NCBI GenBank assembly: GCA_018069465.1
Contig: JAGPUW010000006.1
Location: forward strand, 176,970 to 240,969
Source: Gammaproteobacteria bacterium
GTDB taxonomy: Bacteria; Pseudomonadota; Gammaproteobacteria; Pseudomonadales; Porticoccaceae
Direction of reading: 5' to 3'
DNA: 64,000 nt
Below are positions 2,838 to 30,564 of the stretch, one piece after another. The translations under genes and the position numbers were made by a program. The first letter of the stretch is position 1; the number at the start of each line of letters is the position of its first letter. The notes under the pieces were generated by a model. It searched no databases. It saw only the letters and a program-made list of their open reading frames with translations, and had not been told where the DNA came from.

Positions 2838-4124
2838 CTATCTGCCGGCAGATAATTTCATTTGATGCTTCTTTAGCGCTAGCCCCTTGCCCAAAACAGG
2901 GTTTCGCAAGTGCTTCTCGGCAAGCTCCTCCAGGGCGAATTTTTTGACCAATACGGCTATAAAAATAATATGGTACAACAAATCCCAGTAAGACAAGCCT
3001 AAAAATAGAGTGCCGGTCATATAGGCGATCAGCGAAGCTCTTAGCATATAGCAGTAATTGGCGACCCATTCCAGGCCCTCTATATTTTTTGTTTTTCGCG
3101 GCAATGACGAAAGACTGAAAAGTGTTCCCAGTATTAACGACATCCACAGCGCGAAGGCAATAAAGCCGTGTTCGGAGAACATCTCAACATAGGAGCTGTG
3201 CCAGTCGCGTTCAGAAACCCATCGCCAGCCTTCAAAGCCTGAGCCGACAAAGGGGTGCTGCAGCGTATGATGCCAGCCATCGGACCAGACTCGGATGCGA
3301 CTCATCGCAGATTCATCCTCCTGATAGGTTTCCAGCGTTTCCATACGGCCAAACCAAGTCTCAGGCAAAAACATAGGTGCTAGAAGAATAGCGCTTATAA
3401 GAATAGGTATGACTAAATACTTGCGCTTACTATGCCAGAGTAATATTAGTGTCAATACGCCCATGGTGAGAAAGGCACCGCGAGACCAGGATGAGATGGC
3501 GCAGGCTATCATTATAGGTATGCATGCCGTAATCCCGTAGCGGATTATTTGGCGCGGCGTTTCTTTATACCAGAGAAGCAACAGTGGTATGGCGATTAGT
3601 ACGGCGATAGCAAAGGCATTGTTTTCATAAAACTGCGTGCCTGGGGGGCCATAAACTCGGTGGGCAAAGCCGCTTGTTATTGCAAAAACCCCGCCCTTTA
3701 CAGCCACAAAGCCAATTGAACAGGCGATGGTGACGATCAGATAATAGAGCTTTTGTCGGGTATCAATCAACACTAAGGTAAAGGCAAAGGGCAGATAGAT
3801 TTTGGTGACGAACCAAAATTTTTCCCAGGCAAGCGCAGGGAAATACGCCTGGGTAGTGGTTAATATAAAATATAGCCAGAGTAGAACGAATACGGGAATA
3901 CGCCAGTCCTTTGGTATAGGCTGACGTTCTTTTGACATTATCGTGGCGATAAGCACTACAAAAAATAGGATTTGATAGGCGGGTAGCGTGCGCACAAATC
4001 CCCAAGCAAATGCATGGGGATTAAGATAGCTGAAAATGGCCAGAGCCAGTACCCCGTGCCAGGCGCAGCGAATACTCGCAATTATGCACGCTGATAAAAA
4101 AATTAAAACAGCAATATCACGCAT
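2838..4124 (-). CDS. O-antigen ligase-like membrane protein (exosortase-associated O-glycosylation ligase type)
   Basis: This polytopic membrane protein of about 428 residues has alternating hydrophobic segments and a large loop containing WSRGAFL and a region around HPFVGSGFEGW. It resembles the probable O-glycosylation ligases reported near exosortase A systems, a branch of the Wzy/WaaL superfamily that polymerises glycan or transfers it to an acceptor in the inner membrane. I prefer the ATG at 4124 (MRDIAVLIFL) because the family normally starts this way. An in-frame ATG at 4190 overlaps the stop of the upstream sulfatase-like gene (ATGA) and would add 22 basic, non-hydrophobic residues. 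A C6 run lies directly upstream of the 4124 start. No exosortase or PEP-CTERM protein is visible in the window. Confidence 0.75.
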   Translation of the reverse strand: MRDIAVLIFLSACIIASIRCAWHGVLALAIFSYLNPHAFAWGFVRTLPAYQILFFVVLIATIMSKERQPIPKDWRIPVFVLLWLYFILTTTQAYFPALAWEKFWFVTKIYLPFAFTLVLIDTRQKLYYLIVTIACSIGFVAVKGGVFAITSGFAHRVYGPPGTQFYENNAFAIAVLIAIPLLLLWYKETPRQIIRYGITACIPIMIACAISSWSRGAFLTMGVLTLILLWHSKRKYLVIPILISAILLAPMFLPETWFGRMETLETYQEDESAMSRIRVWSDGWHHTLQHPFVGSGFEGWRWVSERDWHSSYVEMFSEHGFIAFALWMSLILGTLFSLSSLPRKTKNIEGLEWVANYCYMLRASLIAYMTGTLFLGLSYWDLLYHIIFIAVLVKKFALEELAEKHLRNPVLGKGLALKKHQMKLSAGR

Positions 4125-4186
4125 TGGGGGGTGTTCTCTACTTCTTCGGGAGGGTGGTTTTGAACGTGCGCGGTTTCCGCCACATT

Positions 4187-6301
4187 TCAATTGTGCACTA
4201 TGGGGTCATCGTTAATCAGTGCGTCAAGTCTAGCTTTCATACGCGTAAAAATTACGGGCTGGCTATCAGCAATATTGTGAGAACAGTCAGGGTCGTTTTT
4301 CAGGTCATAAAGCCGATATAGCATGCCTGTATCAGTGGCCAGAGCTATAAGCTTCCAGTCGTCATGGCTTAGAGCGCGATCCTTTGCCTTGATTACCTGT
4401 GTATAGAATTCCTTTTTGATACAAAGCATGCCCGTGTTTTTGTTGGGGATATCGAGCAGTTCGAGAATGTTGGGGTAGCAAAGGTGTTGAGGGTGCGCGC
4501 CAGGCATGGGGCTCAGCCATAAGCCGGTTTCTTGATAAGCGAATAAACCTAACACCACCTCTGGGCTCCGCATAACAGGGGCCAGACTTACACCGTCTGC
4601 GGTTTTCAAGGCGGGTAACTGAAGGAGCTCAAGCAGAGTTGGGGCGACATCAATAGTGCGAGTGGTTTGCCCGACAATATGGCCGTGCGCCTGTCGCGGG
4701 TCGTGAATGATGAGTGGCACCTTGCCGCTAGGGTCAGAGCCCATCAGTGTATTGCCTTGCCCCCAGCTTCCCGTTTCAAAAAAATCGGCGCCGTGGTCAC
4801 TATAGATAACGACAATCGTATTGTCGGCCAAACCACAGGCTTCAAGGTGGGTGATGAGCTTGCCTACCTCCTCGTCAAATTGCACAACACAGCCATCATA
4901 GAGGTTGAGTATTTGCGGTACATCAAAGGCCTCAGGTCCTAAAACTTGTTTTTCCATGATTTCCTCGGGGGAGGCAAGCTTGGTCATAATGAACTGAGAG
5001 TCACCGCTGTAATTACTGGGTGTGAATAAGTTGTAGTAAGGGTAGTCAGAGCCAAAGGGCACGTGTGTAGTTGCTGTAAACAGATTAATGAAGAAGGGTT
5101 GATCTTTATCGGCCATTTCGGAGATAAGTGTGCGTGTGTCACTGAATAGCTGCTTTGTTAGAGGGATGCCAGCCAGGTAGTACAGCTCGGGGAGGCACTT
5201 TTTACCGAAACGGTTGTGACAAAATAGACTCAAAAATAAGCGAATGGTAGCGGGGCCCTGGCGTAGTAAATACTTTAGGTTCCACTGATCGTCTGGGACG
5301 CTATTTTGCGTAAATCCAAAGTTAATCTTAGCTAAATCTGCGCCCGCCCAATCGGCAATGGCAGCCGTTTCATAACCAGCCTCGTTCAGGGTTTCAATAA
5401 GGTTATCGACGGGTAGTGCAAGCTGGTCGGCATAAGGGTAGTTGGTGCGTATGCCATGTTTGTGGGGCCAGGTGCCAGTAAATAATGACGTCAGGCTGGG
5501 AGCGGTGCGCGCTAATGGGGTGTAGCAATTGCTGAAAGTAACACCCTGCTCGGCAAGTTGGTCGATATTCGGCGTGAGATTGCGCACGTAATCGGCAGCA
5601 CCCAGGCGATCGGCTCGCAAGGTGTCCGACCCTATCATTAAAATGTTAGGGGTTTTCTTGTCGGCTTCTGATGTTGGTTTGGCTTGCGTAACTGGTGTCG
5701 ATTTAGTATCAGTGACCCAAATATAAAAGCACACATAAAGAGCACACTGCAGGGTATAAAAAACAGCGCTCGGCCACTGAGCCAGTGTTATTAGTTGGTA
5801 AAAGCCAGCGAGGTAAATACCTGCTACACATAGCATTAAAAACCAACGCGCTAGCTTTAGCCGTTGCGGGTTCAATTGTTTCCAAAACGGTGTGAGGCGA
5901 GAAAAACGGAAACGCACCGAGCTAATAAGCAGGCTTGGAATATGCAATAGATAGTGGCTGAAAAGGTAAGTTGATACTAAGGCAACACTGAGTAGACACG
6001 CTAAAAAAAGTACTAGGCTACTGTATTGCAGGCTCAATGCCTGTGCCGCTAGAAAGTAAAGTGAGCCACCCACAGTCGCCAGTGCCATGCAGATAATAAA
6101 ACACCACATGCCAAGTCGTGCCAGTGCATACACGGTGTAATGCGCGTAGTGCTGGGCAATTTCATCTTTTATTCGCGGGCCGGTGCGGGTGTGGTCGCGC
6201 AGGGAAAAATACAACAGAACGGCAGTAACCAGAGCACCCACTAATGCTGAGCTGGCTAAGTTCTGTAGTATTTGGGTAGACAGGGGCAAGTACGTATTCA
6301 T
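4187..6301 (-). CDS. Membrane-anchored sulfatase-superfamily enzyme with Thr in the catalytic site
   Basis: The protein has about 704 residues from the ATG at 6301; an ATG 39 bases further upstream is possible but overlaps the neighbour. Roughly six membrane segments lie in residues 10-200, followed by an alkaline-phosphatase/sulfatase-type domain. Visible metal-site motifs are GSDTLRADR (Asp226) and YSDHGADFFE. At the modification motif CxPSRxxLxTG of true sulfatases this protein reads TAPSLTSLFTG, so the formylglycine Cys/Ser is Thr266 and the Arg is Leu. Thr nucleophiles are known in the phosphoethanolamine and phosphoglycerol transferases of this superfamily, so a glycan phospho-substituent transferase is a real alternative to sulfatase. 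The active domain should face the periplasm. It is 4 bases from the upstream glycosyltransferase. Confidence 0.75.
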   Translation of the reverse strand: MNTYLPLSTQILQNLASSALVGALVTAVLLYFSLRDHTRTGPRIKDEIAQHYAHYTVYALARLGMWCFIICMALATVGGSLYFLAAQALSLQYSSLVLFLACLLSVALVSTYLFSHYLLHIPSLLISSVRFRFSRLTPFWKQLNPQRLKLARWFLMLCVAGIYLAGFYQLITLAQWPSAVFYTLQCALYVCFYIWVTDTKSTPVTQAKPTSEADKKTPNILMIGSDTLRADRLGAADYVRNLTPNIDQLAEQGVTFSNCYTPLARTAPSLTSLFTGTWPHKHGIRTNYPYADQLALPVDNLIETLNEAGYETAAIADWAGADLAKINFGFTQNSVPDDQWNLKYLLRQGPATIRLFLSLFCHNRFGKKCLPELYYLAGIPLTKQLFSDTRTLISEMADKDQPFFINLFTATTHVPFGSDYPYYNLFTPSNYSGDSQFIMTKLASPEEIMEKQVLGPEAFDVPQILNLYDGCVVQFDEEVGKLITHLEACGLADNTIVVIYSDHGADFFETGSWGQGNTLMGSDPSGKVPLIIHDPRQAHGHIVGQTTRTIDVAPTLLELLQLPALKTADGVSLAPVMRSPEVVLGLFAYQETGLWLSPMPGAHPQHLCYPNILELLDIPNKNTGMLCIKKEFYTQVIKAKDRALSHDDWKLIALATDTGMLYRLYDLKNDPDCSHNIADSQPVIFTRMKARLDALINDDPIVHN

Positions 6302-15561: not shown

Positions 15562-16854
15562 TCATAATTCCATATTTTTAAGTGGTTGATGTGGGTTCTT
15601 GTTTTCGATAATGGTATTTCTACCATCCGAAATTGACCATTGCGCAGGCATGTAGGCCAGTGTCCCTTGTGGCAATTTAGTAGCGAATTCCGAAGACGCC
15701 TCTATTAATAACCAAATCAGTTGATTGCCGGTCCAAAGTGGTCGTCTAATCCTGTCATAAATGCCGATACCGATACCATAGCTGCCTGGACACAGTGACA
15801 ATTTATCGATAATCATTTCGATTGTATGGGTGCCAGCGATAAGGTCAATAGGACTGTCTAATAGCGAGGTGCTGGATTTGGTCATAAAAACCATTTCTGG
15901 GTTATGAAGACCAATATTGATTTCTACATTCTTAATTAACTTAGGTACGTAGAGTGTAACTTGCAGGTGGAAATCAGAGAATAACGGACATACTGGGGTT
16001 CCGTCGATGTGCTTATTGGTAGTAACCTCAATTGCCCTTACTTCAATCTCATTAGTGTCGATAGATGGTTTTATGACGTTGTTAGTTTTGCGGACCCCGT
16101 CTAGTTGCGCTAGGGTCGTTTCATCCAGAAATAGCTTGGTAGCCTCGGCGGGCGCCCCGTCGAATATCACTTGCCCATGCTTCAAAAGAATCATGCGAGA
16201 GCATATCCGCTCAAGTTGTCGGACGTTGTGGCCTACGATCAGTACCGTTCGGCCTTGCTTGTTGATCATATTTTCCATACGAGTCAAACATTTTCGCTGA
16301 AAGGCGATGTCACCTACGGCTAGCACTTCATCAACGATCAGGATGTCTGCTTCCATGCTAGTGGCGATGGAAAAACCTAGCTTTACTGTCATTCCAGAGC
16401 TGTAGCGTTTTACTGGTGTGTCGATAAATTGTTCTAGTTCCGAAAAGTCGATTATTTCGTCTAACTTACTTTGAATAATATTTTTGGGTATACCTAGAAT
16501 TGCACCATTAAGGAAGATGTTTTCCCGCCCTGTTAGCTCAGGGTTTACCCCAGCACCAACTTCAATGAGTGGGGCGATACTGCCATTTACAATGACTTCA
16601 CCGCTGGTGGGCTTGGTGATATTAGCGAGGTGTTTGAGTAGGGTGCTTTTACCTGCGCCGTTATGGCCGATAATGCCGACCACTTCGCCTTCTTCAATAG
16701 TGAAGTTGACATCATCCAACGCCTTGAAGCGTTCTCTTTGCCAGGTGCCTTTGCCCTGAATTTTAGCCAAGGTGTGGCGTAGTGTGTCCTTTATGCTGGT
16801 AACGGTACCAAGGTCATACTCTTTGGTGAGATGTTTTACTTCAATGATTGGCAT
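15562..16854 (-). CDS. wzt: Polysaccharide ABC exporter, ATP-binding protein with carbohydrate-binding C-terminus (Wzt type)
   Basis: The 430-residue protein has two parts. Residues 1-250 are an ABC ATPase with Walker A GHNGAGKST near residue 66, signature YSSGMTVKLGFS, Walker B ILIVDEVLAVGD and the H-loop IVGHNVRQ. Residues 275-420 form a beta-rich domain like the Wzt C-terminal carbohydrate-binding domain, which in known O-antigen exporters recognises a terminal modification of the finished chain. The protein should pair with the permease gene 48 bases upstream to flip undecaprenyl-linked polymer to the periplasm. The next gene is a methyltransferase, coupled by one base. The symbol reflects the type of system, not proven orthology. 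Confidence 0.88.
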   Translation of the reverse strand: MPIIEVKHLTKEYDLGTVTSIKDTLRHTLAKIQGKGTWQRERFKALDDVNFTIEEGEVVGIIGHNGAGKSTLLKHLANITKPTSGEVIVNGSIAPLIEVGAGVNPELTGRENIFLNGAILGIPKNIIQSKLDEIIDFSELEQFIDTPVKRYSSGMTVKLGFSIATSMEADILIVDEVLAVGDIAFQRKCLTRMENMINKQGRTVLIVGHNVRQLERICSRMILLKHGQVIFDGAPAEATKLFLDETTLAQLDGVRKTNNVIKPSIDTNEIEVRAIEVTTNKHIDGTPVCPLFSDFHLQVTLYVPKLIKNVEINIGLHNPEMVFMTKSSTSLLDSPIDLIAGTHTIEMIIDKLSLCPGSYGIGIGIYDRIRRPLWTGNQLIWLLIEASSEFATKLPQGTLAYMPAQWSISDGRNTIIENKNPHQPLKNMEL

Positions 16855-16902
16855 AAATGCTTTTACTCGTTGATCAGTATTTTAGCGTGTTTATTTATAG
16901 GC

Positions 16903-17721
16903 TTAGATAATATCGGCAAACCAGTTTTCAGCACGCTTAAAAAACAGATAACTCAGGGGTAGAAGTATCGCGGTGGCGATAAAGCCTGGTAGTAGTGCAG
17001 TAAAGTCGGGTGCTATGCCTTGTAGCAGGCATTTTTGAAAGCTGTCAATAATCCCTGCGAGGGGGTTGATATTGTAAATGGTGTACAGGGTTTCAGACCA
17101 TTCACCGGCAGCGCGCTCGTCAAGTAGTTTTGTTTTGACCAGGCTTAATGGGTAGATTACGGGTGAGGCATACATGGCGAGGGATAATAATACGGGTAGT
17201 GCCTGGGCGACATCACGATAGTAAACATTCAGCGCCGAGCCGAAGAGGCTGATTGTTAAAGCCACTAGCATGGTATAAAAAATAATGAGCGGCACCCACA
17301 GTACTTGTACAGTGGGTAGCATTTGGTAGTACACCATTAGTGCGGCCAGAATAAGGAAGCCGATAGCTAGCTCTACCAATTTGGTAACCATAGCTGTAAG
17401 GGGGAAGACTTCTCTGGGGAAGTAAATTTTCTTAATTAATGAGGTGTTGGCGGTTATGCTGTTTACACCCTCTGATGCTGATTCCTGGAAAAATATCCAC
17501 GGCATTAATGCGGCGAATGTCAGTATAGGGTAGGGGATGTCGCCTGTTTCAATCCCGACGAAGCTTTTTACCAAAGTAAAAATTAGCATTAGCATAAGGG
17601 GCTTGATTACCGCCCAAAGTAAACCAAGGTAGGCCTGCTTATAGCGTACCACTATGTTTTTCCACGCCAGTGCTGCTATGAGTTCCCGATATTGGTAAAG
17701 GTTTTTTGGTGAGGCTATCAT
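16903..17721 (-). CDS. wzm: Polysaccharide ABC exporter permease (Wzm type)
   Basis: The 272-residue integral membrane protein belongs to the ABC-2 permease family. The N-terminus has YRELIAALAWKNIVVRYKQ, the amphipathic coupling region seen in Wzm/TagG/KpsM proteins, followed by YLGLLWAVIKPLMLM and about six membrane segments. It forms the channel through which lipid-linked polysaccharide leaves the cytoplasm, with the adjacent ATPase as partner. AAGGA lies about 11 bases before the ATG. It is the first gene of the exporter pair in this minus-strand block, 58 bases after the stop of the TPR protein gene. Confidence 0.9.
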   Translation of the reverse strand: MIASPKNLYQYRELIAALAWKNIVVRYKQAYLGLLWAVIKPLMLMLIFTLVKSFVGIETGDIPYPILTFAALMPWIFFQESASEGVNSITANTSLIKKIYFPREVFPLTAMVTKLVELAIGFLILAALMVYYQMLPTVQVLWVPLIIFYTMLVALTISLFGSALNVYYRDVAQALPVLLSLAMYASPVIYPLSLVKTKLLDERAAGEWSETLYTIYNINPLAGIIDSFQKCLLQGIAPDFTALLPGFIATAILLPLSYLFFKRAENWFADII

Positions 17722-19396: not shown

Positions 19397-20631
19397 TATG
19401 GTGTTCTCAGCAGGTCAGAATATAAAGTTTGAATTAAGTCAGTATGTTTTTCTACCGCAAAGGTGGCTAGTGCATGCTGCCTTGCGGCTGCGCCAAGATG
19501 TATTCGCTTTGCTGGCGCTTGATAAAAGCTGTTAATAGCCCGCGCAAGGCTTGCGGCATCACCGGGCGTGAATAATAAACCGGTTTTTTCATGGCTCATC
19601 ATTTCCGCCGCCCCACCGTGATTTGGCCCGATAAGTGGTCGGCCCATGGCCATGGCTTCGATGACTACTGTGCCGAGTGGTTCTGGGCTGGTTGATGCGG
19701 AGACGACGACATCAACACCTTTGTACACGGCGGGCATGTCGGTATTGTGGCCGGTAAAAATTACCGTATCGCTCAAGCCTTCCTGTTCAACTCGCTGGCG
19801 CAGGTGGCTTTCAAAGGCGACGCAGTCATCGGGCGTACCACCAATGATGAGCATTTTTAGGCAGGGTATTTTATCTTTAAGCGCTTTAGCGGCGTCGAGA
19901 AAAATTTCCTGACCCTTCCAGGGAATCAACAGGCCGACCAGGCCGACGGCAAAGTCTTCGTCACTGAGTTCGTGCTGCTGGCGAAAGGGTTGACCGCTGA
20001 TGTTGGGGTCGAGGCCGTCGAGTTCAAGCCCGTCGTAAATAACGCTAATTTTATTTTCAGGTACGGCCAGTTTGCTTTGTATGCTTGCTGATACCCAGTG
20101 AGATACCGGGGTGAAGTGACTCGGCAGGCTGAAGGCCCAGCTCATGAGGCGTGAGCCGTCCTGGTCGCCGCGCACATGGCACACGGTAGGGATCTTTAGC
20201 ACTTTGCCGACTAATAATGCGGCGCGGTTGCACAGGGGTTCGTTATTGGCGTGTATCAGGTCGGCTTTAAAGCGCCGGGCTGTCCACAGTAAATGGAGGA
20301 AGAAGGGCAGGAAGTTAAACAGGTCGTCGGCGCGGGCGAGTATCTGGTTGACCACAAAGCGCAAGCCGGGGACTTTGTCGATCCAGGTTATGGGGTCAAC
20401 TTTTTGGTGTGCGCCAACAATATCGAGATGGCGGTCGGGGATGTGCTGCCACTGGGCTTCGTTGGCGATTTCCCGATACTGGGGGCCAGTGCGGCCAGTA
20501 ACGACCATGGGGGTGAAGCGCGAGCGGTCGAGATTTCTCACTAAATGACGAAGGCAAATAATGGCGCCACCGTAACCGATGCCATTTTCGACGTAGAGAA
20601 TATGCTGCTGTTTGCCCCTGCCCTGCTTCAA
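19396..20631 (-). CDS. Glycosyltransferase family 4
   Basis: The 411-residue GT-B transferase begins with an acceptor loop ENGIGYGGAIICL. It has HANNEPLCNRAALL in the N-terminal half, VIYDGLELDGLDP near residue 200, LLIPWKGQEIFLDA in the donor domain and SPEPLGTVVIEAMAMGRP near residue 310, the EX7E-like donor-binding motif. It should add a sugar in the cytoplasm at the membrane. Its start overlaps the stop of the GT2 gene by 4 bases (ATGA) and its stop overlaps the next start, so it lies inside a tightly coupled run of four genes (22849 to 18407). Confidence 0.87.
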   Translation of the reverse strand: MKQGRGKQQHILYVENGIGYGGAIICLRHLVRNLDRSRFTPMVVTGRTGPQYREIANEAQWQHIPDRHLDIVGAHQKVDPITWIDKVPGLRFVVNQILARADDLFNFLPFFLHLLWTARRFKADLIHANNEPLCNRAALLVGKVLKIPTVCHVRGDQDGSRLMSWAFSLPSHFTPVSHWVSASIQSKLAVPENKISVIYDGLELDGLDPNISGQPFRQQHELSDEDFAVGLVGLLIPWKGQEIFLDAAKALKDKIPCLKMLIIGGTPDDCVAFESHLRQRVEQEGLSDTVIFTGHNTDMPAVYKGVDVVVSASTSPEPLGTVVIEAMAMGRPLIGPNHGGAAEMMSHEKTGLLFTPGDAASLARAINSFYQAPAKRIHLGAAARQHALATFAVEKHTDLIQTLYSDLLRTP

Positions 20632-21587
20632 TTACCGATCCTTTTTATGCTTTGTGTCACTTTCCTTGCGAGCGAAATTATAACAGGTGGCAGTGCGCAT
20701 GCGTGGTAAAAAATGCGTGTGCGTAGCGTTGGGCAGGCTTGTTTACACTGGCCGAAAGTTTGCCGGGCTTTGTTGTATTCGCCTCGATCAAAGTGCCAGT
20801 AGGCGAGATCCCACAATGTATTCGCGACTAACTGGTCGGCGTTCACACCCTGATCCGCTAGCGTGTTGCCTGCGAAATGTTTTATCGACTGCATAACCTT
20901 GACCAGGTCTTCGAGCATTGGCTCGGTGCTGCTGGTGGCATTTGCGCCGTGTAGGCGGCGTAACATGTGGATGGCAGGCAGGCAGGTAATGGGGTGGTGG
21001 CAGGCTATTTTTGCCCACAGTTCAAGGTCTTCGCCGAAGCGAATCTCACGGTTGAACAGGCCTGCGTTTAATAGTGCTTCGCGTTTGACTAACACGGTGC
21101 CGGTGGGGATGACGTTTTTGCGTACCAAGTGGGCCAGGGCATTGGGTAGAGGTGCGCCGTTGAGATTTTGAAAAAACGCGCGCTGCTGGTGTTTGGCCAG
21201 CACAGACTCGGTGATAAGTTTGTGCTGGCTGTCGATTTCTGCCATGTCAGAGGCTATTAAGCTGAGTTCAGGGTATTGCTTGAGGGCTGCGAGCTGCTGC
21301 GCTGTTTTCTCGGCTGTCCATTGGTCATCGGCATCGAGAAAGGCTATCCAGTCGCCACTCGCCGCTGCTATGCCTTTGTTGCGCGCCGCCGATGGCCCCT
21401 GGTTTTGCTGGCGTAGATAGATGGCACCGGGGGCGATTGCGTGCACGACGGCTTGCGTATTATCGGTAGAGCCGTCGTCAACGACAATAATTTCATCGAC
21501 GGGGTGGGTCTGCTTGTGGATGCTTTCTAGCGCCTGGCCGATAAAACTTTCGGCATTATAGGCCGGTATGACAGCGCTAATTTTCAA
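20628..21587 (-). CDS. Glycosyltransferase family 2
   Basis: The 319-residue GT-A transferase opens with MKISAVIPAYNAESFIGQA. It has EIIVVDDGSTDNT near residue 35, FLDADDQWTAEKT near residue 90 (DxD site) and IRFGEDLELWAKIA near residue 180, the acceptor/base motif. This pattern is standard for O-antigen GT2 enzymes. It has 4-base overlaps both upstream (with the deacetylase-like gene) and downstream (with the GT4 gene). Codon use is GC-richer than the WbsX region. Donor sugar unknown. Confidence 0.88.
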   Translation of the reverse strand: MKISAVIPAYNAESFIGQALESIHKQTHPVDEIIVVDDGSTDNTQAVVHAIAPGAIYLRQQNQGPSAARNKGIAAASGDWIAFLDADDQWTAEKTAQQLAALKQYPELSLIASDMAEIDSQHKLITESVLAKHQQRAFFQNLNGAPLPNALAHLVRKNVIPTGTVLVKREALLNAGLFNREIRFGEDLELWAKIACHHPITCLPAIHMLRRLHGANATSSTEPMLEDLVKVMQSIKHFAGNTLADQGVNADQLVANTLWDLAYWHFDRGEYNKARQTFGQCKQACPTLRTRIFYHACALPPVIISLARKVTQSIKRIGN

Positions 21588-22849
21588 GCTTTAATCCTGC
21601 GTCCGGCCAAGGCTTGAATTAACAAAATAGGCAGTGCCAAGCCCGTTAGCAGGGCCACGGCCTTTAATTTTGGGTGGCGATAGCGCAGCCGGTATAGGTA
21701 GGCGGCGATTTTTGGCCAGCCGCGCAGGGTGAGCAAGGGCGGTGATAATTCGGTTGCAAAAGGGTTGTTTAATTCGGCACTGGGTTTGGCTATTGCTTGT
21801 GCTAGCTCGGGCGAGGACAGGAAACGCACTTGGCCGAGGCCAGACAATTTACTGAGTAAAGTCTTTAGCCCGGCGAGTGAGTCGCGGTGCTCGGGCTCAC
21901 TGCGGGTGAAGTTGTAGCGGTGGCTTGAAATCGTCACCGGTAGGGCTTGAGCGATAGCGGCGCGGCTTTCCTGCCAGGCGGTGTCGGCATTGGTGCGCCC
22001 GTCGGTGGGTTCGAACATGACGTTTCTGGCGAGATAAATGTGTCCATCATCGCTCTGTTCGCCCGGTCGAATTAGCGGCTTATCTTGATGATAATGGCCC
22101 TGGCTATCACGACCAGTGCAGCGATAACCGGCCGTTTGAATGGATTTTATACCGTGTTGAAACCACAAGCTTTCAACCTCGCCATTCCACAAATAGCAGG
22201 GGGCAACCGTGCTGTAACTGGCTGTGCCAAAGAGGCGTTCGAAGTATTCGGCAGCCATTTTGATGATGGTACTGGCCTGGGCGGGATCAATGGGCTGGGT
22301 AGGTAGCGAGCTGCCATCGACATAGTGGCCCTGGAGTGGTGAGTCGAGGCTTTCCCAATCCCACCAGCCGGGCTGGCTAAAGGCTTCGTCGGTTCTGGGG
22401 TCAGCAATATTACGAAGATGGGTGAGTGCTTCGCCGTTGAGGTGCTCCATGCCGTGTAATTGCGGGACAAAGGCACCGTCTTTGGCGGCGCTTTGGAATG
22501 CCTGGGTGAGCGCGGGGAAACCCTGATCTAACAATAGCCGATGGTAGCGTTTGGTATCGGCCTGTATTTTTTCAATATCGGGAACGGCCAGCACCATATT
22601 GGCGGTGAGTACCGGGTGTCTTCCCTGGCTGTCGGAATATTGTTTGAGGGTATTGAGTAGATCGTTTAATCGATCAATATGGAAAGCGCCGCCGGGGCCC
22701 CAGTCGTCACTTTCGAGCAGGACGGGGATATCGGCGAAATAGGGCTCTCGCCAGGTTTGCTGAAATAAAGGTTTTTTCCACAGCCAGAGCAGCAGTACGC
22801 ATGAGGTCCACCAGCTGAATAAAATGAGTAGTGCAAAGAAAAAATCCAT
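21584..22849 (-). CDS. Membrane-anchored polysaccharide-deacetylase-like protein
   Basis: The 421-residue protein has an N-terminal membrane segment (FFFALLILFSWWTSCVLLLW). A soluble domain follows with PVLLESDDWGPGG near residue 45 and FVPQLHGMEHLNGEAL near residue 130. The Asp pair and the HxxxH arrangement recall the NodB/polysaccharide-deacetylase fold, and a late TISSHRYNF could supply the second His. A second hydrophobic stretch near the C-terminus (VALLTGLALPILLIQAL) may be a tail anchor. No well-described family comes to mind. It is the first gene of the large minus-strand glycan block, and its promoter probably lies in the 270-base divergent region 22850-23120. Confidence 0.55.
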   Translation of the reverse strand: MDFFFALLILFSWWTSCVLLLWLWKKPLFQQTWREPYFADIPVLLESDDWGPGGAFHIDRLNDLLNTLKQYSDSQGRHPVLTANMVLAVPDIEKIQADTKRYHRLLLDQGFPALTQAFQSAAKDGAFVPQLHGMEHLNGEALTHLRNIADPRTDEAFSQPGWWDWESLDSPLQGHYVDGSSLPTQPIDPAQASTIIKMAAEYFERLFGTASYSTVAPCYLWNGEVESLWFQHGIKSIQTAGYRCTGRDSQGHYHQDKPLIRPGEQSDDGHIYLARNVMFEPTDGRTNADTAWQESRAAIAQALPVTISSHRYNFTRSEPEHRDSLAGLKTLLSKLSGLGQVRFLSSPELAQAIAKPSAELNNPFATELSPPLLTLRGWPKIAAYLYRLRYRHPKLKAVALLTGLALPILLIQALAGRRIKA

Positions 22850-23120
22850 ATTTTAAATGCGCGGTGTAATATTCCTAAGTGTTTGAAACGTGGCCGCTAG
22901 TATAACCATAAGGCGGGCGGGGTGTTGTTTGAGGGTTCAATATGTGTCTGGCTTCACCATAAACGTTAAATAACGTGACTTTCTGCTTGCGGGTTCTGTC
23001 TGCTTTGAGCAAAAAAACATACAGCGCAGGTGTGAAGTTTAACCTTTGGCTGTTTTACATTACGTTGGCATGAATATCATGCTTTAGTGTGCCGAGCCAT
23101 TGTTGGTGTGGGGATATTAT
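22850..23120. promoter_or_regulatory. Divergent intergenic region between two glycan transcription units
   Basis: These 271 bases separate the minus-strand deacetylase-like gene from the plus-strand VanZ/ligase gene and must hold start signals for both long units. I see a TATACT hexamer on the minus strand about 50 bases before the minus-strand start, but no -35 box at a good distance. On the plus strand GGGGA lies 6 bases before the ATG at 23121. No coding sequence or repeat was recognised here. Confidence 0.35.
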
Positions 23121-26100
23121 ATGTTCAACCGCAGTCAAGTTTTCGGGTTCTTTCTGGCCTATCTGTTGTTTATTGTCTACGGCAGTCTTATTCCCTTCGA
23201 GTACCGCGCCTATAGCTTTGATCAGGCGCTGGCGCAGTTTGCCGATATTCGCTATTTAGATTTGGGTTTGGGCTCGCGTGCCGACTGGATCGCCAACATC
23301 ATTCTGTACATCCCCCTGTCGTTTTTATCGTGCTTGTGGCTGGCTGGGGCGGGCCGTCGTTCAACTGTCGATTATCTGGTTTTGCCGCTGGTACTGGCGC
23401 TGGTATTGGTGGTCGCGGCCAGTGTTGAGTTTACCCAGATATTTTTTGCCCCGCGCACGGTGTCTATCAATGACCTGATTGCCGAAACTCTCGGCGGCCT
23501 TGGGGGCATGGCCCTGTGGTTGTTTGGGCGGGACTGGTTGGCACATTTGTGGCGCTCCTTTAGCGACGGTGGGCATCAGTCCATTGTCGCTATGTTGAGT
23601 GTTTACTCTGTGTTTTATATTGGCCAGTCACTCTTCCCCTTTGATTTTGTAGTCTCCTCTGCGGAGCTGGGCTGGAAGCTCGATTCCGATAATTACGGTT
23701 TATTGGTCGCCGGTGATTGTGAGTCTTTGCTCCGTTGCTTGGCGCGTTTGTTGGGTGAGGCGGTGGCCATCGTGCCGCTGGGTGTGCTGGCGGCCTTGGC
23801 CTACCCCACCTTCGGTTTGGACAGTGGCGGTGGCCTGCGGCGTGTATTGCTGATTGGCGCGTTGCTCGGTGTTTTACTTGAGTTTGTACAGTTCTTTACG
23901 GCCTCGGGGGTTAGTCAGGGGCTTTCGGTAGTGATGCGCAGTTTCGGGCTGGGTGCGGGGGTTTTTATCGGCCATATTCTGCGCCAGCTGGGGGCGGGCT
24001 TTCTTGCCAGAACCATTCGCCAGTTTACGCCGTGGCTGCTGCTACCCTATTTGCTGGCGCTGGTCGCTCTGGCGGGTTGGTTTAACGAAGCCTGGCGGCC
24101 CTTGAGTGAATTTTCTGCGCGCCTGGCCGATGTGCGGGTCATGCCTTTTTACTATCACTATTATTCGACAGAGCCACAAGCCATGGCCAGCTTGTTGGCG
24201 AATATGGCGATGTATCTGCCGCTCGGTTTGGCCATGTGGGCGGGGCGCACGGTCAGGGCCAATACGGCGCTGCGGCTGGGGCGGTCGCGCAATATCAATT
24301 ATCGTAAGGGCGCGCTGCGGCTCACGGCTGCGGTGGCCATGGGTCTGGCCTTGTTGGTGGAGCTGGGTAAAGTGCTGGTGCCTGCCAAGCACCCCGACTT
24401 TACCAATCTGTTGATAGCGGCTGTGGCGGCGGTGTTGACGTATGCCTTTATGCGCTGGTTGGAGGGGGCATTACTTGATAAGCAGACTGATAAACAGGCC
24501 TTAGGCGTAGCGAGGCCAGCGGCGCGAAAGTCGCAAGACACTGCACAGCCTGCGTTGCAGCGCACTCGAACTGTCGACTCCAACGCTGCTTTAAGTGCTG
24601 ACAGCAGCACTGACACAAGCCCCGCTTTCAGTCTTGAGCCGCTGGCTGACGGTGGTCTGGCAGGGCGTGATGTGGCGCCACCTTCTGGGCCGAGCACTAT
24701 TGGTTTGCTTTATACCTTGCCCCTGATGGCGGCGATTGGCCTCGGTGTTTACGGCTACCCGCTGCTGATGCCGCTTCTGGTTATGGCGCTATTGGTCTAT
24801 GGGGCGCTGCTTTGGCGCTGGCCTCTGCTGTGGTTTTTTGTGTTGCCGCTGTTGCTGCCCTTACTCGATTTTAGCCAGCATACGGGGCAGCTGGCCCTCG
24901 ATGAATTTGATCTGTTTGTATTAATGACCCTGCTGATTGGCACTTTGCGCGGTGGTCGCTCTGCGCCTTTGCCCTGGCCAAACCCATTGCTACCCATGGT
25001 GCTGGCCTTGTTGTGGTTGAGTTGGCTGCTGTCAACGCTGCCCCCATTGTGGCCCTTGCTGGGTGGGGCCGATCTACGCCAGCCAGGCTCCCACTCACCC
25101 ATCGCCGCGTGGATGGTGGCCAAAGGTTTGCTGTGGGCTTTACTGCTGGTGCCCCTTATCCGGCGCACGCCGGGCGAGCAGCTGGCAAGGGCCAAGCAAT
25201 GTATTTTGTGGAGTCTCAGCGCGGGTCTGGTTTGTTTATCACTGGTGGTGATGGCGCAGCGCCAGGCTTTTGTCGGCCTAGCTGATTTCGATAATATCTT
25301 TCGGGTGACGGGTACTTTTTCGAGCATGAATACCGGGGGTGCTTATATAGAAGCGTATATCGGCCTTGCCTTCCCGGCACTGCTGCTTTGGGTCTTGAAT
25401 CAAAGGGCTTGGTGGTGGCGCTTGTGTGGGGGTGTCGCCGTTGCCATGGCGGTTTACGCGATGCTGGTGACTTACTCGCGGGTCGGTTATGTGGCACTTG
25501 GCCTGGGTTTTACCGTGGTTTTTCTTGCCTGGGTAGGCAAAAGGGAGGCGCTTGCCAGGGGCAAAAAATTGCTGGTTTTTGTGGGTTTATTACTGGCGGG
25601 GCTGGCCGTGTTAACACCGCTGGTCTCGGCAGGCTTTGCCCAATATCGACTCGCCCGCTCGGCGGATGACTTTACCTTTCGCCTTCACCATTGGCAGCAG
25701 GCTATGGCTTTGATGAATGGGGGCGTGTTGAGCAAAATAATGGGCGATGGCTTTGGGCAATACCCGGTTCACCATTTGCTGTATGCCGATGAAGAGGCGG
25801 TGGCGAGTCGCTATCGTTTAAAAAATGAAGCGGGTCTTAACTTCTTGCAGATGAGAGCGGGCAAGACAGCCTACCTTGAGCAGATTGTTGATATTGAGCC
25901 CAACCAGCACTACCAGTTAAGTCTGCGGCTGCGTCGGCCCGAGTTCTCCCCGCTTGATGAATTTGGCGCAGTGGCTAGCAGCGCGAAAAACACCGCCCTG
26001 ACAGCCTTCGTTTGTGAAAAGGCGCTGTTGTATTCCTTCGGCTGTATCCGCCTGCCGGTGGATATGGATTTGATCAATTCAAGCTGGGGCGATGTGGTCT

Positions 26101-26624
26101 TGCCCTTTGATTCCGGCCAACTGGGTAGTGGGTTTTGGCCCCGGCGCCCGGTCAAGCTTTCGCTATTGAATGGGAGTGGTGTGGTCGATATTGCTGCAGT
26201 CGCGCTTACAGCGCCCGGCGGTGGCGATGCCCTGGCCAACGGTGATTTTGCCGATGGCACAAAGCATTGGCTCTTCGTCACCGATCAGGATTTGGCCTGG
26301 CATATCCACCAGCAATGGCTTGAAGTGTATTTTGCTCAAGGCCTACTCGGCATTATTGCGCTGGTGTTATTGCTGTTGCTACTAGCGCGTGTGCTGTATC
26401 GACCCGTGCTGCAGGGTGACATTGTTGCCGCCGCCTTCGCCGCTGCGCTGCTGGCTTTTTTAACCGTCGGTTTGCTGGGCAGCACGCTGGATAGTGCGCG
26501 CAGTTCAATGTTGTTTTACTTGTTAGCTTTTTGTGTGATAGTGCTGTCCACTAAACAAAGGCGGTCCAATGAGGCGCATAGCCAAGCACTGGGCCGCCAT
26601 AAAGCAGGGCATAAGAGGGAGTGA
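23121..26624 (+). CDS. VanZ-repeat / O-antigen ligase-like fusion membrane protein
   Basis: This is an unusually long polytopic protein of about 1167 residues. The first 450 residues hold what look like three VanZ-type units: VYGSLIPFEYRAY then ADWIANIILYIPLSF; YIGQSLFPFDFVVS; and a third with LLANMAMYLPLGLAMW. A flexible Ala/Ser/Thr-rich linker of about 90 residues follows. The second half resembles an O-antigen ligase/polymerase (GTFSSMNTGGAYIEAY, LVTYSRVGYVALGL, LSKIMGDGFGQYP). It is interrupted by a soluble beta-rich insert of about 200 residues before the last membrane segments, which may bind carbohydrate. ATG 23121 is preferred over an upstream TTG because GGGGA precedes it by 6 bases. 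A role in polymerising or attaching the glycan is inferred. Confidence 0.72.
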   Translation: MFNRSQVFGFFLAYLLFIVYGSLIPFEYRAYSFDQALAQFADIRYLDLGLGSRADWIANIILYIPLSFLSCLWLAGAGRRSTVDYLVLPLVLALVLVVAASVEFTQIFFAPRTVSINDLIAETLGGLGGMALWLFGRDWLAHLWRSFSDGGHQSIVAMLSVYSVFYIGQSLFPFDFVVSSAELGWKLDSDNYGLLVAGDCESLLRCLARLLGEAVAIVPLGVLAALAYPTFGLDSGGGLRRVLLIGALLGVLLEFVQFFTASGVSQGLSVVMRSFGLGAGVFIGHILRQLGAGFLARTIRQFTPWLLLPYLLALVALAGWFNEAWRPLSEFSARLADVRVMPFYYHYYSTEPQAMASLLANMAMYLPLGLAMWAGRTVRANTALRLGRSRNINYRKGALRLTAAVAMGLALLVELGKVLVPAKHPDFTNLLIAAVAAVLTYAFMRWLEGALLDKQTDKQALGVARPAARKSQDTAQPALQRTRTVDSNAALSADSSTDTSPAFSLEPLADGGLAGRDVAPPSGPSTIGLLYTLPLMAAIGLGVYGYPLLMPLLVMALLVYGALLWRWPLLWFFVLPLLLPLLDFSQHTGQLALDEFDLFVLMTLLIGTLRGGRSAPLPWPNPLLPMVLALLWLSWLLSTLPPLWPLLGGADLRQPGSHSPIAAWMVAKGLLWALLLVPLIRRTPGEQLARAKQCILWSLSAGLVCLSLVVMAQRQAFVGLADFDNIFRVTGTFSSMNTGGAYIEAYIGLAFPALLLWVLNQRAWWWRLCGGVAVAMAVYAMLVTYSRVGYVALGLGFTVVFLAWVGKREALARGKKLLVFVGLLLAGLAVLTPLVSAGFAQYRLARSADDFTFRLHHWQQAMALMNGGVLSKIMGDGFGQYPVHHLLYADEEAVASRYRLKNEAGLNFLQMRAGKTAYLEQIVDIEPNQHYQLSLRLRRPEFSPLDEFGAVASSAKNTALTAFVCEKALLYSFGCIRLPVDMDLINSSWGDVVLPFDSGQLGSGFWPRRPVKLSLLNGSGVVDIAAVALTAPGGGDALANGDFADGTKHWLFVTDQDLAWHIHQQWLEVYFAQGLLGIIALVLLLLLLARVLYRPVLQGDIVAAAFAAALLAFLTVGLLGSTLDSARSSMLFYLLAFCVIVLSTKQRRSNEAHSQALGRHKAGHKRE

Positions 26625-26628
26625 AGTA

Positions 26629-27012
26629 ATGAAAAAGATGGTGCTAGTTGGTGCGATTTTAACCTTGGGGGCGGCTAATGTATTGGCCGATTGTACACCC
26701 GATACGATAGTACTTGATGCTGGTGTTGCCTTATCGGGTCAGCGTATTGAGGCAACGGGTGGCGAAGATTGGAAGGAAATCCATTGCTCTGGTGGTCGGC
26801 TGTTTAAAGTGGGTGCTGGTACGGTGGTTGACCCCGAGACCGACATTGGGGCGTGGACGACGGACGGTGCCGTGGTGACCTATAAGTACGATAAACCCGG
26901 TGGTGGCACAAATAATTTTACTTTTGAGCTGCATGAATCGGGCGGTACATATTTTTTCTGCGACGGTCTTTCTGTAAAAGCCTCGGGTACCTTGTCGCCG
27001 GAAAGCTGCTAG
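26629..27012 (+). CDS. Small secreted four-cysteine protein, unknown function
   Basis: The protein has 127 residues from the ATG at 26629, with GAGGGAG 10-17 bases upstream. A signal peptide is clear: MKKMVLVGAILTLGAANVLA, cut before DCTPD. The mature part is about 107 residues, Gly- and Thr-rich and acidic, with four cysteines (DCTP, HCSGG, FCDG, ESC at the very end), so two disulfides are plausible. The pattern suggests a small beta-sheet periplasmic or exported protein. No family was recognised. It lies 4 bases after the VanZ/ligase gene and is almost surely co-transcribed with it. Confidence 0.7.
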   Translation: MKKMVLVGAILTLGAANVLADCTPDTIVLDAGVALSGQRIEATGGEDWKEIHCSGGRLFKVGAGTVVDPETDIGAWTTDGAVVTYKYDKPGGGTNNFTFELHESGGTYFFCDGLSVKASGTLSPESC

Positions 27013-27089
27013 CTGTTCCTGTTCAGTCTAAAGGGGCAGGCTCCAAGAGGATAGAGCTGGGCGTGAGCCCTTAATGACAGCCCAAATTG

Positions 27090-28994
27090 TTACTGCGTAA
27101 AGTGGGTATCTAACCACAACTCCAGCACCGTCAAAATCCAAATTAACTCACCGTAATAGGCCGCATGGCCATTGCGGTGCAGATCAATCAGTTCATCAAT
27201 AAAAGCAGGATTGAGCCAGTTGCGCTTTTTTAGCTTTAGCAGGTTGTCGTAGGCCAGTTCTTGCAGGGGCTGATGACTTTGCATCCACACGCCGAAGGGC
27301 AGGCCGAAGCCTTGTTTTTTCTTATTAATCGTTTCGTCGGGCAGCCAGTTTGTCAGGGCTTTTTTGTAGAAGTGCCGCAGGTTTTGCCCCTTCATTTTCC
27401 ATTTGCCGGGTATTTGGCAGGCAAAGGCGATGAGTTCGTCATCGAGCATGGGGTAGGTGACGTCAACACCGGCCACTGCGCACATGTGGTTGACCTTGCG
27501 CAGGTCGTTGTCGGCGAGGGTGAATTGCCAGTCGAGATAGAGCATGCGATTGAGGGTCGAGGCATCGGGCGGCAGTTGGTAAACCTCTTGCTGCAAGGCA
27601 GCCGGTGAGGCGGTATTAATTTGGCTGAGGAAGTCGCTGGAAAATATTTCCTCCGGGCGGTGGCGGTTGAGAAAGTTATAGCTTTGCAGGCGGTCGGGCA
27701 GGGGCACATTCGCCTGGTCGATATAACTTTTTGCCTTTGCCGCCAGGGCGATTTGGCTCGGCAGGGCCTGGGTGAAGGGTTCTATAAAATGCTTGCGCAG
27801 TGCCGGGGGGATTTTTTGGTAGGCCTCAAAAACCCCCTGTTTGGCGTAGCGTTCGTTACCGGCGAATATTTCATCGCCGCCGTCACCGGCGAGCAGACAG
27901 GTGATGCCGTCTTCGGCAGCCAGCTTGGCGCAAAAGTAAGCGGGCAGTGCCGATGAGTTGCCAAAGGGTTCGTCGTAGCTGGTGGCGATGTCGGGCAGTG
28001 CGTCGACCACATCGTCGGGGGTGACGTAGTACTCATTGAGTTTGACGCCAAATTTCTTCGCACTAATGCGCGCGTAGGCCATCTCGTCATAGCCCTCGGC
28101 GGCAAAGCCGATGGAGTAGGCGCGGGCCTGGTGTTCGCTCAATTCACTGAGCATGCCGGTGACGCTGGAGCTGTCGAGCCCGCCACTAAGAAACGCGCCG
28201 GTGGTGCTGTAGTCGGTGATGGAGCGAGCGACGGCAGACTTAAGCTGGGGGCGCAGCTCTTTGGCCATGGCGCGAAAGCTCTTATCTGAGCTTTCGGCGA
28301 AGCGCGGTTGCCAGTAGTTGAGTATTTCTATTTTGTCGCCACTGTATTTTAAGACGTGTCCGGCGGGCAGTTTAGACAGGCCCTGATAGATGGATACCGG
28401 GCTGGGCACCATGTGAAAATAAATAAAGTCGTAAATACCCTGGGGCAGAATTTTGCGTTCGATGTCGCTATGTGCCAGCACGGCGCTGGCGGATGATCCG
28501 AAGACCAGGCCGCCGCTCTCTCGACTATTGGTGTTTGTTGGTTGGGCATAGTACAGGGGGTAGTGGCAGAGCCGATCAACCCCTGCAAGCACGGTGTTTT
28601 TGGCGCTATCAATAATCACAAAGGCAAAGTTGCCGCCGAGCTGGGCAAGAAAGTTGTCGTTGTCTTGACGATAGGCAGCGGCGAGTGCGGCGCTATGGCT
28701 GGACTCGGCAGCCAGTGTGGCCAGGTGGGCACTGTGCCACTGGGGGTGGCCAATAATGGCGACCATGCCGCTGTCTGCACTGCTGTTACTCAGGGCGAAA
28801 AGCCTGTCGGTCGCGGCGCAGGAATAGGTTTTTCCGGCGTGGGTATTGACGTTGAGTGAGGTGTTTAAGCCGGCCAGCATGGCATCGAGCTCAATATAGG
28901 CATTGTGCGGGGTGGCATTGGGAAGGAACCAGCCCGCGAGGCCGCGAGTGAGTGTCGGGCGTTTAAGGCTATTGGGGCTGCGAGTGGTGGGCAT
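27090..28994 (-). CDS. Asparagine synthetase-like protein without the glutaminase Cys
   Basis: The 634-residue protein has the two-domain layout of class B asparagine synthetases. The C-terminal synthetase domain is intact, with the ATP PP-loop GAFLSGGLDSSSVTGML near residue 270, SYDEPFGNSSALP and LLAGDGGDEIFAGNERY. The N-terminal part keeps the late glutaminase segment LGGNFAFVIIDS and PLYYAQ. However, the N-terminus reads MPTTRSPNSL rather than MCGI, so the nucleophilic Cys needed to release ammonia from glutamine is missing. It could use free ammonia, or form an amide or ester-activated product by other chemistry. It follows rfbC by 35 bases and probably amidates a sugar acid or other glycan substituent (inference). 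Confidence 0.8.
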   Translation of the reverse strand: MPTTRSPNSLKRPTLTRGLAGWFLPNATPHNAYIELDAMLAGLNTSLNVNTHAGKTYSCAATDRLFALSNSSADSGMVAIIGHPQWHSAHLATLAAESSHSAALAAAYRQDNDNFLAQLGGNFAFVIIDSAKNTVLAGVDRLCHYPLYYAQPTNTNSRESGGLVFGSSASAVLAHSDIERKILPQGIYDFIYFHMVPSPVSIYQGLSKLPAGHVLKYSGDKIEILNYWQPRFAESSDKSFRAMAKELRPQLKSAVARSITDYSTTGAFLSGGLDSSSVTGMLSELSEHQARAYSIGFAAEGYDEMAYARISAKKFGVKLNEYYVTPDDVVDALPDIATSYDEPFGNSSALPAYFCAKLAAEDGITCLLAGDGGDEIFAGNERYAKQGVFEAYQKIPPALRKHFIEPFTQALPSQIALAAKAKSYIDQANVPLPDRLQSYNFLNRHRPEEIFSSDFLSQINTASPAALQQEVYQLPPDASTLNRMLYLDWQFTLADNDLRKVNHMCAVAGVDVTYPMLDDELIAFACQIPGKWKMKGQNLRHFYKKALTNWLPDETINKKKQGFGLPFGVWMQSHQPLQELAYDNLLKLKKRNWLNPAFIDELIDLHRNGHAAYYGELIWILTVLELWLDTHFTQ

Positions 28995-29029
28995 CTTGGT
29001 CGACAGGGCCTTTGGTAGTGGTGGCTGGC

Positions 29030-29596
29030 TTAGTTTTGGTCAGTAGCAATTTTCAGGGCTGAGTCGGCCAGCGACTTGCCCTGTTGATCCTTGCCCGACA
29101 GGCTGGGCGCGCCCTCTATACGGTCGAGGGGCCAGTCTATGCCAATGCTCGGGTCGTCCCAGCGCAGGCAGCCTTCGTCGGCGGGGTGGTAGAGATCGGT
29201 GCATTTATAGGTGATTAATGCGGTGTCGCTGGTGACCAGAAAACCGTGGGCAAAGCCCTCGGGTATCCACAGTTGGTGATGATTGTCTGATGATAAAAAG
29301 CGTCCTACCCAGCGGCCAAAGGTGGGCGAGTCGGCGCGAATATCCACCGCAACATCGAAGATTTCACCCTGCAATACATAGAGCAATTTGCCCTGGGGAT
29401 TGGGCCACTGATAGTGCAGGCCGCGCAACACTCCGCGGCTGGAGAAGGACACATTGTCCTGCACAAAGTTGCGCTCAATGCCTAGTTCGGCGTAGCGCTG
29501 CTGGTGGAAGGTCTCCTTAAAGTAGCCCCTGGCGTCGCCGTAGACTGCGGGCTTAATCAGCAAGACTTCGGGTATTTCGGTTTGTTCAACTTCCAT
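29030..29596 (-). CDS. rfbC: dTDP-4-dehydrorhamnose 3,5-epimerase
   Basis: The 188-residue cupin enzyme of dTDP-L-rhamnose synthesis epimerises C3 and C5 of the 4-keto-6-deoxy intermediate. Family motifs are RGYFKETFHQQRYAELG, the catalytic His in RGLHYQWPNPQGKL, PEGFAHGFLV and YKCTDLYHPADEGCLRW; the Tyr in the last segment is the acid. Length matches the family. The gene is third-to-last in the order rfbB, rfbD, rfbA, rfbC, asparagine synthetase-like gene, all on the minus strand with gaps under 50 bases. Confidence 0.95.
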   Translation of the reverse strand: MEVEQTEIPEVLLIKPAVYGDARGYFKETFHQQRYAELGIERNFVQDNVSFSSRGVLRGLHYQWPNPQGKLLYVLQGEIFDVAVDIRADSPTFGRWVGRFLSSDNHHQLWIPEGFAHGFLVTSDTALITYKCTDLYHPADEGCLRWDDPSIGIDWPLDRIEGAPSLSGKDQQGKSLADSALKIATDQN

Positions 29597-29634
29597 GGTG
29601 GGCCTTTTTACGGTGCATTGGTTTTAGCGCGCGA

Positions 29635-30519: not shown

Positions 30520-30564
30520 TTCTTATTCGGTCCTTGTTTTACGGCACGTTAGCAGATGTGCACT

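What the first reader, a model, noticed from the sequence alone, without database searches (positions are those of the whole stretch)
23121..26624. Giant fusion: three VanZ-like units plus an O-antigen ligase with a soluble insert
About 1167 residues join VanZ-type repeats, a long disordered linker and a ligase-like half with a beta-rich insert near the end. I know of no characterised protein with this layout. It is on the opposite strand to the surrounding glycan genes, forming an island with one small secreted protein.
Basis: partly seen in the sequence, partly recalled or inferred. Interest (0 to 1): 0.7.

Follow-up and report, generated by a model that had tools for sequence, protein, structure and literature searches.

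The report
Triple VanZ platform fused to ligase
A bacterium and many related proteobacteria carry one giant membrane protein that joins three VanZ domains to a glycan ligase-like half with a carbohydrate-binding-like insert; it is predicted to attach exported sugar chains while handling the lipid they ride on, which would give the poorly understood VanZ domains a testable job.

Summary
The ORF at 23121-26624 (1167 aa) contains three VanZ domains (Pfam), a low-confidence linker, and a WaaL-like half whose periplasmic loop carries a CBM4/CBM16-like beta-sandwich just before the HxH motif. It is not an assembly error: full-length relatives occur in gamma- and betaproteobacteria, some on contigs above 4 Mb. 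The three copies diverged before the partner domains did: copy 1 keeps an invariant N / ExxQ / RTxSxND set, copies 2 and 3 keep other sets. The triple-VanZ block (VanZ3) is the stable part; elsewhere it stands alone, or is fused to a heparinase II/III-like lyase, or to an unknown membrane domain, the last at the syntenic locus in sister species. The small secreted neighbour (26629-27012), a predicted lipocalin-like barrel, follows VanZ3: 9 of 369 class genomes have it, and all 9 have a VanZ3 match. Best explanation: a lipid-carrier-handling platform coupled to a glycan-transfer (elsewhere glycan-cutting) enzyme. Architecture and conservation are shown; carrier chemistry, ligation and the lipocalin's role are inferred. 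A VanZ-1/WaaL association is already in print (PMC12419801); I found no description of this layout. New variant of a known kind.

The parts
23121..26624 (+). VanZ3-ligase fusion gene, 1167 aa
23130..23567 (+). VanZ copy 1 (residues 4-149): N59, E103xxQ106, R112TxSxND118xxAE122 invariant or nearly so
23571..24008 (+). VanZ copy 2 (residues 151-296): E254xxQ257, S262G263, R273 kept; no H4 Asp
24012..24506 (+). VanZ copy 3 (residues 298-462): P342, Y347, E351, Y365, E414xxK417, D426
24510..24671 (+). low-confidence linker (residues 464-517), placed in the cytoplasm by alternation of helices
24696..26594 (+). WaaL-like GT-C half (residues 526-1158), insert included
25479..25481 (+). R787, equivalent of E. 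coli WaaL R215
25680..25682 (+). R854 (RxxHW), placed at E. coli WaaL R288 by motif
25803..26282 (+). CBM-like beta-sandwich insert (residues 895-1054), with C965 and C975 kept in 120 of 120 rows that have letters there
26301..26309 (+). H1061-I-H1063, equivalent of the WaaL HLH (H336/H338)
26629..27012 (+). small secreted, predicted lipocalin-like partner (127 aa)
15562..17721 (-). context: Wzt/Wzm-type ABC glycan exporter of the same cluster
2838..4190 (-). context: a second ligase of the cluster, TIGR03097 (exosortase A system-associated)

Best explanation
This 1,167-residue membrane protein carries three VanZ-type domains and a ligase-like half with an inserted carbohydrate-binding-like domain, and it likely transfers exported glycan chains off their undecaprenyl carrier while its first VanZ domain is predicted to process the carrier's phosphate head group left behind. 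Shown: domain order, invariant residues, the two WaaL-type Arg and an HxH motif, partner exchange, and co-occurrence with the small secreted protein. Predicted by model or topology: conserved VanZ residues, ligase active site and insert all face the periplasm, so one protein could hold the carrier (VanZ3), grip the chain (CBM-like insert) and move it to an acceptor (ligase). Inferred: VanZ copy 1 hydrolyses or exchanges the head group; copies 2 and 3 bind lipid or support the fold; the lipocalin-like protein takes up a released lipid or small glycan. A single job, release of a chain from its carrier plus carrier salvage, would explain why VanZ3 is joined to a ligase here and to a polysaccharide lyase elsewhere.
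Against: No biochemistry exists here. In copy 1 the published VanZ-1 H4 motif DxDDxxxN reads SxNDxxxE, so activity is not assured. The position of the WaaL catalytic His (H1063 here) is H in 63 of 120 rows and D, K, E or other in the rest; the neighbouring H1061 is kept in 112 of 120. No Foldseek match reaches E 0.001 (7tpg E 0.013). The cluster already has a TIGR03097 ligase, so the fusion may not be its main ligase. Some genomes have the ligase-CBM half without VanZ3: G191, G359, G029, G036, and G020 by match range only. Of the 23 class genomes with VanZ3, 14 lack a detected lipocalin-like gene, as do the sister species with the unknown-membrane-domain type (G001, G004).
Confidence: 0.4

Rival explanations
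1. VanZ3 is a non-catalytic lipid-binding scaffold that recruits lipid-linked glycan to whichever enzyme it is fused to; only the fused enzyme does chemistry.
For: Copies 2 and 3 lack the full VanZ-1 set yet keep their own invariant residues. Partner exchange is what a docking platform would give.
Against: Copy 1 keeps N, ExxQ, D and the RTxSxND stretch in nearly all rows and through all partner types, with few departures: more than lipid binding alone seems to need.
Confidence: 0.3
2. The ligase half is a Wzy-type polymerase that joins repeat units, not a terminal ligase.
For: Ligases and inverting polymerases share the GT-C1 clan, most polymerase families having Asp or Glu at the His position (PMC10920833, section 11); that position varies as H, D, K or E here. 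Relatives such as L098 lie beside exosortase-A-type EPS genes.
Against: In the window the cluster has a Wzm/Wzt-type exporter, a pathway that in general (recalled) needs no periplasmic polymerase. WaaL is the top fold match, although polymerase structures may be missing from the PDB.
Confidence: 0.15
3. It is a protein O-oligosaccharyltransferase (PglL-like) and the neighbouring small secreted protein is its glycosylation target.
For: PglL-type genes often lie beside their targets (PMC3643930, passages). The small gene follows within 4 bases here and adjoins the fusion in 7 of 11 genome loci, three of them from the window's genus.
Against: Five genomes with the small protein (G078, G225, G333, G298, G394) have VanZ3 without a detected ligase-CBM half; the small protein follows VanZ3, not the ligase.
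Confidence: 0.1
4. Assembly chimera or chance fusion.
For: None found.
Against: Single open frames of the same layout in many genomes, some on contigs above 4 Mb.
Confidence: 0.01

Closest known systems
VanZ-1 family of the lipocone superfamily (PF04892; PMC12419801)
   Same: Pfam match, helix order with a helical handle between H1 and H2, H2 Asn, H3 ExxQ and H4 Asp in copy 1, periplasmic side, polysaccharide gene context.
   Different: Three divergent tandem copies; H4 motif SxNDxxxE instead of DxDDxxxN; fused to a ligase or a lyase. The passages read report neighbourhood associations or direct fusions of VanZ with polysaccharide genes, name a WaaL-like transferase among VanZ-1 associations, a betaproteobacterial VanZ duplication, and VanZ joined to lectin-type domains; none describes this layout. 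Its source-data tables were not readable here and may list it.
WaaL O-antigen ligase (PF04932, GT121, 7tpg)
   Same: Fold over 355 of 403 residues; two key Arg (one aligned, one placed by motif); HxH after the long periplasmic loop.
   Different: About 160-residue CBM-like insert in that loop, two helices before the WaaL-like part, weak sequence similarity, variable catalytic-His column.
TIGR03097 exosortase-A-associated O-glycosylation ligase (window 2838-4190)
   Same: Wzy_C ligase superfamily, same gene cluster.
   Different: 450 aa, no VanZ domain and no insert among its Pfam matches.
Heparinase II/III-like lyases (PF07940)
   Same: Alternative C-terminal partner of the same VanZ3 block in other genomes.
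   Different: Unrelated enzyme; below the NCBIfam HepB cut-off in G298; substrate unknown.
CBM4/CBM16-type carbohydrate-binding modules (4mgq, CBM4-2)
   Same: Beta-sandwich fold; sequence similarity around the NGxF stretch.
   Different: Inserted inside a ligase loop, with a conserved CEKxLLYSFxC segment; ligand unknown.

Membership tests
VanZ (PF04892 / VanZ-1 lipocone) | Pfam gathering score | tested here: met
   three copies at 53.4, 31.0 and 30.9 bits against 30.1
VanZ (PF04892 / VanZ-1 lipocone) | four-helix core with helical handle in the H1-H2 linker | tested here: met
   helices H4-23, H33-41, H50-75, H82-106, H116-149 and two further repeats in the model; no VanZ structure was compared
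VanZ (PF04892 / VanZ-1 lipocone) | Asn in H2 and, shared with the Skillet families, ExxQ in H3 | tested here: met
   copy 1: N59, E103 and Q106 in 117 of 117 rows that have letters there; copies 2 and 3 only in part
VanZ (PF04892 / VanZ-1 lipocone) | DxDDxxxN in H4 | tested here: inconclusive
   copy 1 reads SxNDxxxE; copy 2 has no Asp; copy 3 reads DxTN or DxTD
VanZ (PF04892 / VanZ-1 lipocone) | head-group enzyme activity | not testable with these tools
   predicted in PMC12419801, not measured for this layout
WaaL-type O-antigen ligase | WaaL fold | tested here: met
WaaL-type O-antigen ligase | Pfam Wzy_C gathering score | tested here: inconclusive
   24.8 against 31.7 bits; 34.8 bits
WaaL-type O-antigen ligase | two functional Arg (E. 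coli R215, R288) | tested here: met
   R787 and R854 in 121 of 121 rows; R215 aligned by hhalign, itself of low probability; R288 matched by motif only, as MAFFT did not align it
WaaL-type O-antigen ligase | catalytic His (E. coli H338) | tested here: inconclusive
   H1063 in the window; H in 63 of 120 rows; the adjacent H1061 in 112 of 120
WaaL-type O-antigen ligase | transfer of glycan to lipid A-core | not testable with these tools
   acceptor unknown
Carbohydrate-binding module (insert) | CBM beta-sandwich fold | tested here: met
Carbohydrate-binding module (insert) | carbohydrate binding | not testable with these tools
   no ligand data
Lipocalin (small partner) | eight-stranded lipocalin barrel | tested here: inconclusive

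The most novel reading that the evidence does not exclude
VanZ3 is a general lipid-carrier salvage platform into which different chain-release enzymes are plugged (ligase, polysaccharide lyase, others), with a dedicated periplasmic lipocalin shuttling the freed lipid: a coupled 'release and recycle' machine for surface glycans and the first defined job for VanZ.
Probability: 0.27. Interest if true: 0.85.

Novelty: new variant of a known kind. Interest (0 to 1): 0.6.

Why it matters
VanZ domains are widespread in bacteria (PMC12419801), yet their reaction is predicted, not proven. A natural fusion to a glycan ligase-like enzyme, replaced elsewhere by a polysaccharide lyase on the same VanZ block, points to the lipid-linked glycan as the shared substrate and gives a single-protein test. 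One search names methane-oxidising genera that carry it (Methylomonas, Methylococcus, Methylotuvimicrobium), where deletion and lipid-pool measurements should be possible.

Tried and rejected
Rejected: an assembly chimera. Rejected as the main reading: the small protein as the ligase's glycosylation target, since it occurs with VanZ3 in five genomes without a detected ligase-CBM half. Considered and not adopted: membership of the exosortase system. The genome has two exosortases on another contig and the window cluster has a TIGR03097 ligase; but among the ORFs listed for loci L022 and L027 I recognised no exosortase-type genes by eye (not searched by family).

Limits of the counts: one search scored at most 2 candidates a genome and at most 10, so absences are not firm; one search scored only the 7993 candidates sharing most words and listed 120 of 157.

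Led nowhere: a Shine-Dalgarno pattern scan of the window (169 matches against 160 expected); a promoter/terminator scan (near the shuffled means); profile search of the PDB (one CBM hit, the other three at E 1.2 or worse, no VanZ or WaaL); the window's other ligase against the PDB (none). Profile alignment of the ligase half to E. coli WaaL was weak (hhalign probability under 2%; 93 to 96% for the core of an ordinary ligase of the same genome, from a single sequence), so residue equivalence rests on local motifs, with R288 left unaligned by MAFFT, and on the fold match. The fold search of the whole model lists no VanZ structure and barely tests the VanZ part; this absence says nothing. The C-terminal membrane part of the 816-aa sister protein matched no Pfam family. 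Search by short words for the small protein found only 4 proteins, one of them the window's own. The copy tree had not fully settled; copy 2 of the 816-aa type fell outside the other copy-2 rows. In the module tree (44 rows) the five lyase rows fell together with weak support (80/60), and row L030 was labelled 'alone' although its ligase half lies in another frame.

Full report
WHAT IS THERE. The ORF at 23121-26624 (+) encodes 1167 aa. Pfam finds VanZ three times and Wzy_C once. In the genome scan the three VanZ units score 53.4, 31.0 and 30.9 bits against a cut-off of 30.1 and the Wzy_C stretch 34.8 bits (24.8, under the cut-off). The AlphaFold2 model, made from 121 aligned rows, has mean pLDDT 89.1 and pTM 0.68: three repeats of helix, short handle helix and three more helices; a low-confidence stretch 464-517; a second membrane half from 526; and a beta domain at about 895-1054 between helices 881-888 and 1065-1097.

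THE VANZ COPIES. Lipocone paper PMC12419801 (abstract, section 7 and searched passages seen) gives the VanZ-1 marks as Asn in H2 and DxDDxxxN in H4, with ExxQ in H3 shared with the Skillet families, and predicts action on undecaprenyl-linked head groups of the outer leaflet. Copy 1 keeps N59, E103, Q106, R112 and T113 in 117 of 117 rows with letters there, and S115, N117 and D118 in 118 of 118. Copy 2 keeps E254, Q257 and R273 in 118 of 118 but no H4 Asp. Copy 3 keeps P342, Y347, E351, Y365, E414 and D426 in 121 of 121. In a tree of 54 copies from 18 proteins each copy groups with its own kind (copy 1: 99/97; copy 3: 92/79; copy 2 except for the two 816-aa-type rows). The triplication thus precedes the exchange of partners, and the copies were kept for different tasks (inference). 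With loop sides assigned by alternation from a cytoplasmic N-terminus, the cytoplasmic VanZ loops are richer in Lys/Arg than the others in 121 of 121 rows (means 0.185 and 0.066, N-terminus and linker left out). This puts the conserved VanZ loops, the ligase loops and the insert on the periplasmic side.

DISTRIBUTION. 157 proteins at E <= 1e-3, 120 listed; sources name Cellvibrionales, Reddybacter, Methylocaldum, Methylococcus, Methylomonas, Methylotuvimicrobium, Thiodictyon, Thiohalocapsa and Casimicrobiaceae among others; further loci from Rhodoferax, Sulfuricella, Tepidiphilus, Thiobacillaceae and Sedimenticola. Of 369 genomes drawn from the class, 29 match the profile at E <= 1e-15. Sorting these 29: VanZ3-ligase 10; VanZ3-lyase 6 (G109, G118, G127, G256, G298, G394; Pfam PF07940 confirmed for G298 and G109, the others by similarity to G298's domain); VanZ3 alone 6; VanZ3 plus unknown membrane domain 1 (G067, with a separate ligase-CBM); ligase-CBM without VanZ3 2 (G191, G359); partial weak VanZ matches 4. 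Of 15 genomes whose VanZ3 is not joined to the ligase, 14 had no match to the ligase-CBM half.

THE LOCUS. The window cluster has a Wzm/Wzt-type exporter (15562-17721), WbsX-type and other glycosyltransferases, a sulfatase-family protein, rml genes and an asparagine-synthase-like amidotransferase, and a TIGR03097 ligase at 2838-4190. In the same genus, G004 keeps this order, from the TIGR03097 ligase (80.5% identity) through Wzm (90.6%) to the rml genes, but has an 818-aa VanZ3-membrane protein instead of the fusion and the small gene; G001 has the like as far as its contig goes. In another family, G394 has VanZ3-lyase, the small protein, Wzm (71.7%) and Wzt within some 9 kb. So a VanZ3 protein recurs in this kind of cluster and its partner domain is what changes.

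MECHANISM. Two partners of opposite kind (ligase, lyase) both could end the life of a carrier-bound chain: one moves it, the other cuts it. What remains in both cases would be undecaprenyl-PP or a short stub. A VanZ copy with a near-complete lipocone site next to either enzyme is best explained as processing that remainder, with the other copies holding lipid. This is inference; the scaffold reading is the main rival.

KNOWN OR NEW. Databases name such proteins 'VanZ family protein' and similar. PMC12419801 reports that VanZ families show neighbourhood associations or direct fusions with polysaccharide genes and lists a WaaL-like transferase among those of VanZ-1; a VanZ-WaaL link as such is therefore in print. 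The passages I saw do not describe three VanZ copies, the CBM-like insert, the lyase exchange or the lipocalin-like partner ('heparinase', 'lyase' and 'lipocalin' do not occur in its main text); its source data were not readable. Searches of the paper library for VanZ with O-antigen ligase, exopolysaccharide (14), teicoplanin and undecaprenyl (15), exosortase (23), heparinase (53), carrier recycling (87), and for VanZ-domain and Wzy_C terms (88) showed, in their listings, no description of this layout; most subscription papers are not held. I call it a new variant of a known kind: known folds in a conserved assembly that I found undescribed.

Noticed in passing
L075:1-3522 and L117 (G394): A second protein with a divergent VanZ-like N-terminal half, joined by eye to the same type of heparinase-like lyase, lies directly upstream of the VanZ3-lyase gene.
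   Followed up: partly
L026, L070, L072, L074, L076, L083, L101, L105: A homologous protein with beta-helix similarity (PF13229 in L070; no Pfam hit in L101) lies close to the VanZ3 gene, directly upstream in 6 of these 8 loci; possibly a polysaccharide-modifying enzyme.
   Followed up: partly
15 hits, e.g. L027, L028, L076, L087, L098, L099, L101: A small HtrA-like peptidase gene recurs near VanZ3 or ligase-CBM genes (some hits are one genome fetched twice).
   Followed up: no
L093, L094 (G004, G001), L088 (G067): VanZ3 fused to about 350 residues of membrane protein without a Pfam match in the one tested (L094); in the two sister species it lies at the syntenic locus.
   Followed up: partly
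window 21584-22849: A 421-aa membrane-anchored protein without Pfam or NCBIfam match between the glycosyltransferases and the fusion; it looks deacetylase-like by eye.
   Followed up: no
window 15000-19000: This part of the glycan cluster has lower GC (0.41-0.46) than 19000-34000 (0.51-0.58), as expected for an exchanged sugar-specific core; the fusion lies in the high-GC part.
   Followed up: no
L030:1842-4981: In one betaproteobacterial contig the VanZ3 and ligase halves lie in two different frames; a frame break or a true split was not resolved.
   Followed up: no
G000 C21:534505-535263 and C21:686010-686762: The genome encodes two exosortases on another contig; the first lies about 11 kb from a further Wzy_C ligase (C21:546058-546465).
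   Followed up: no
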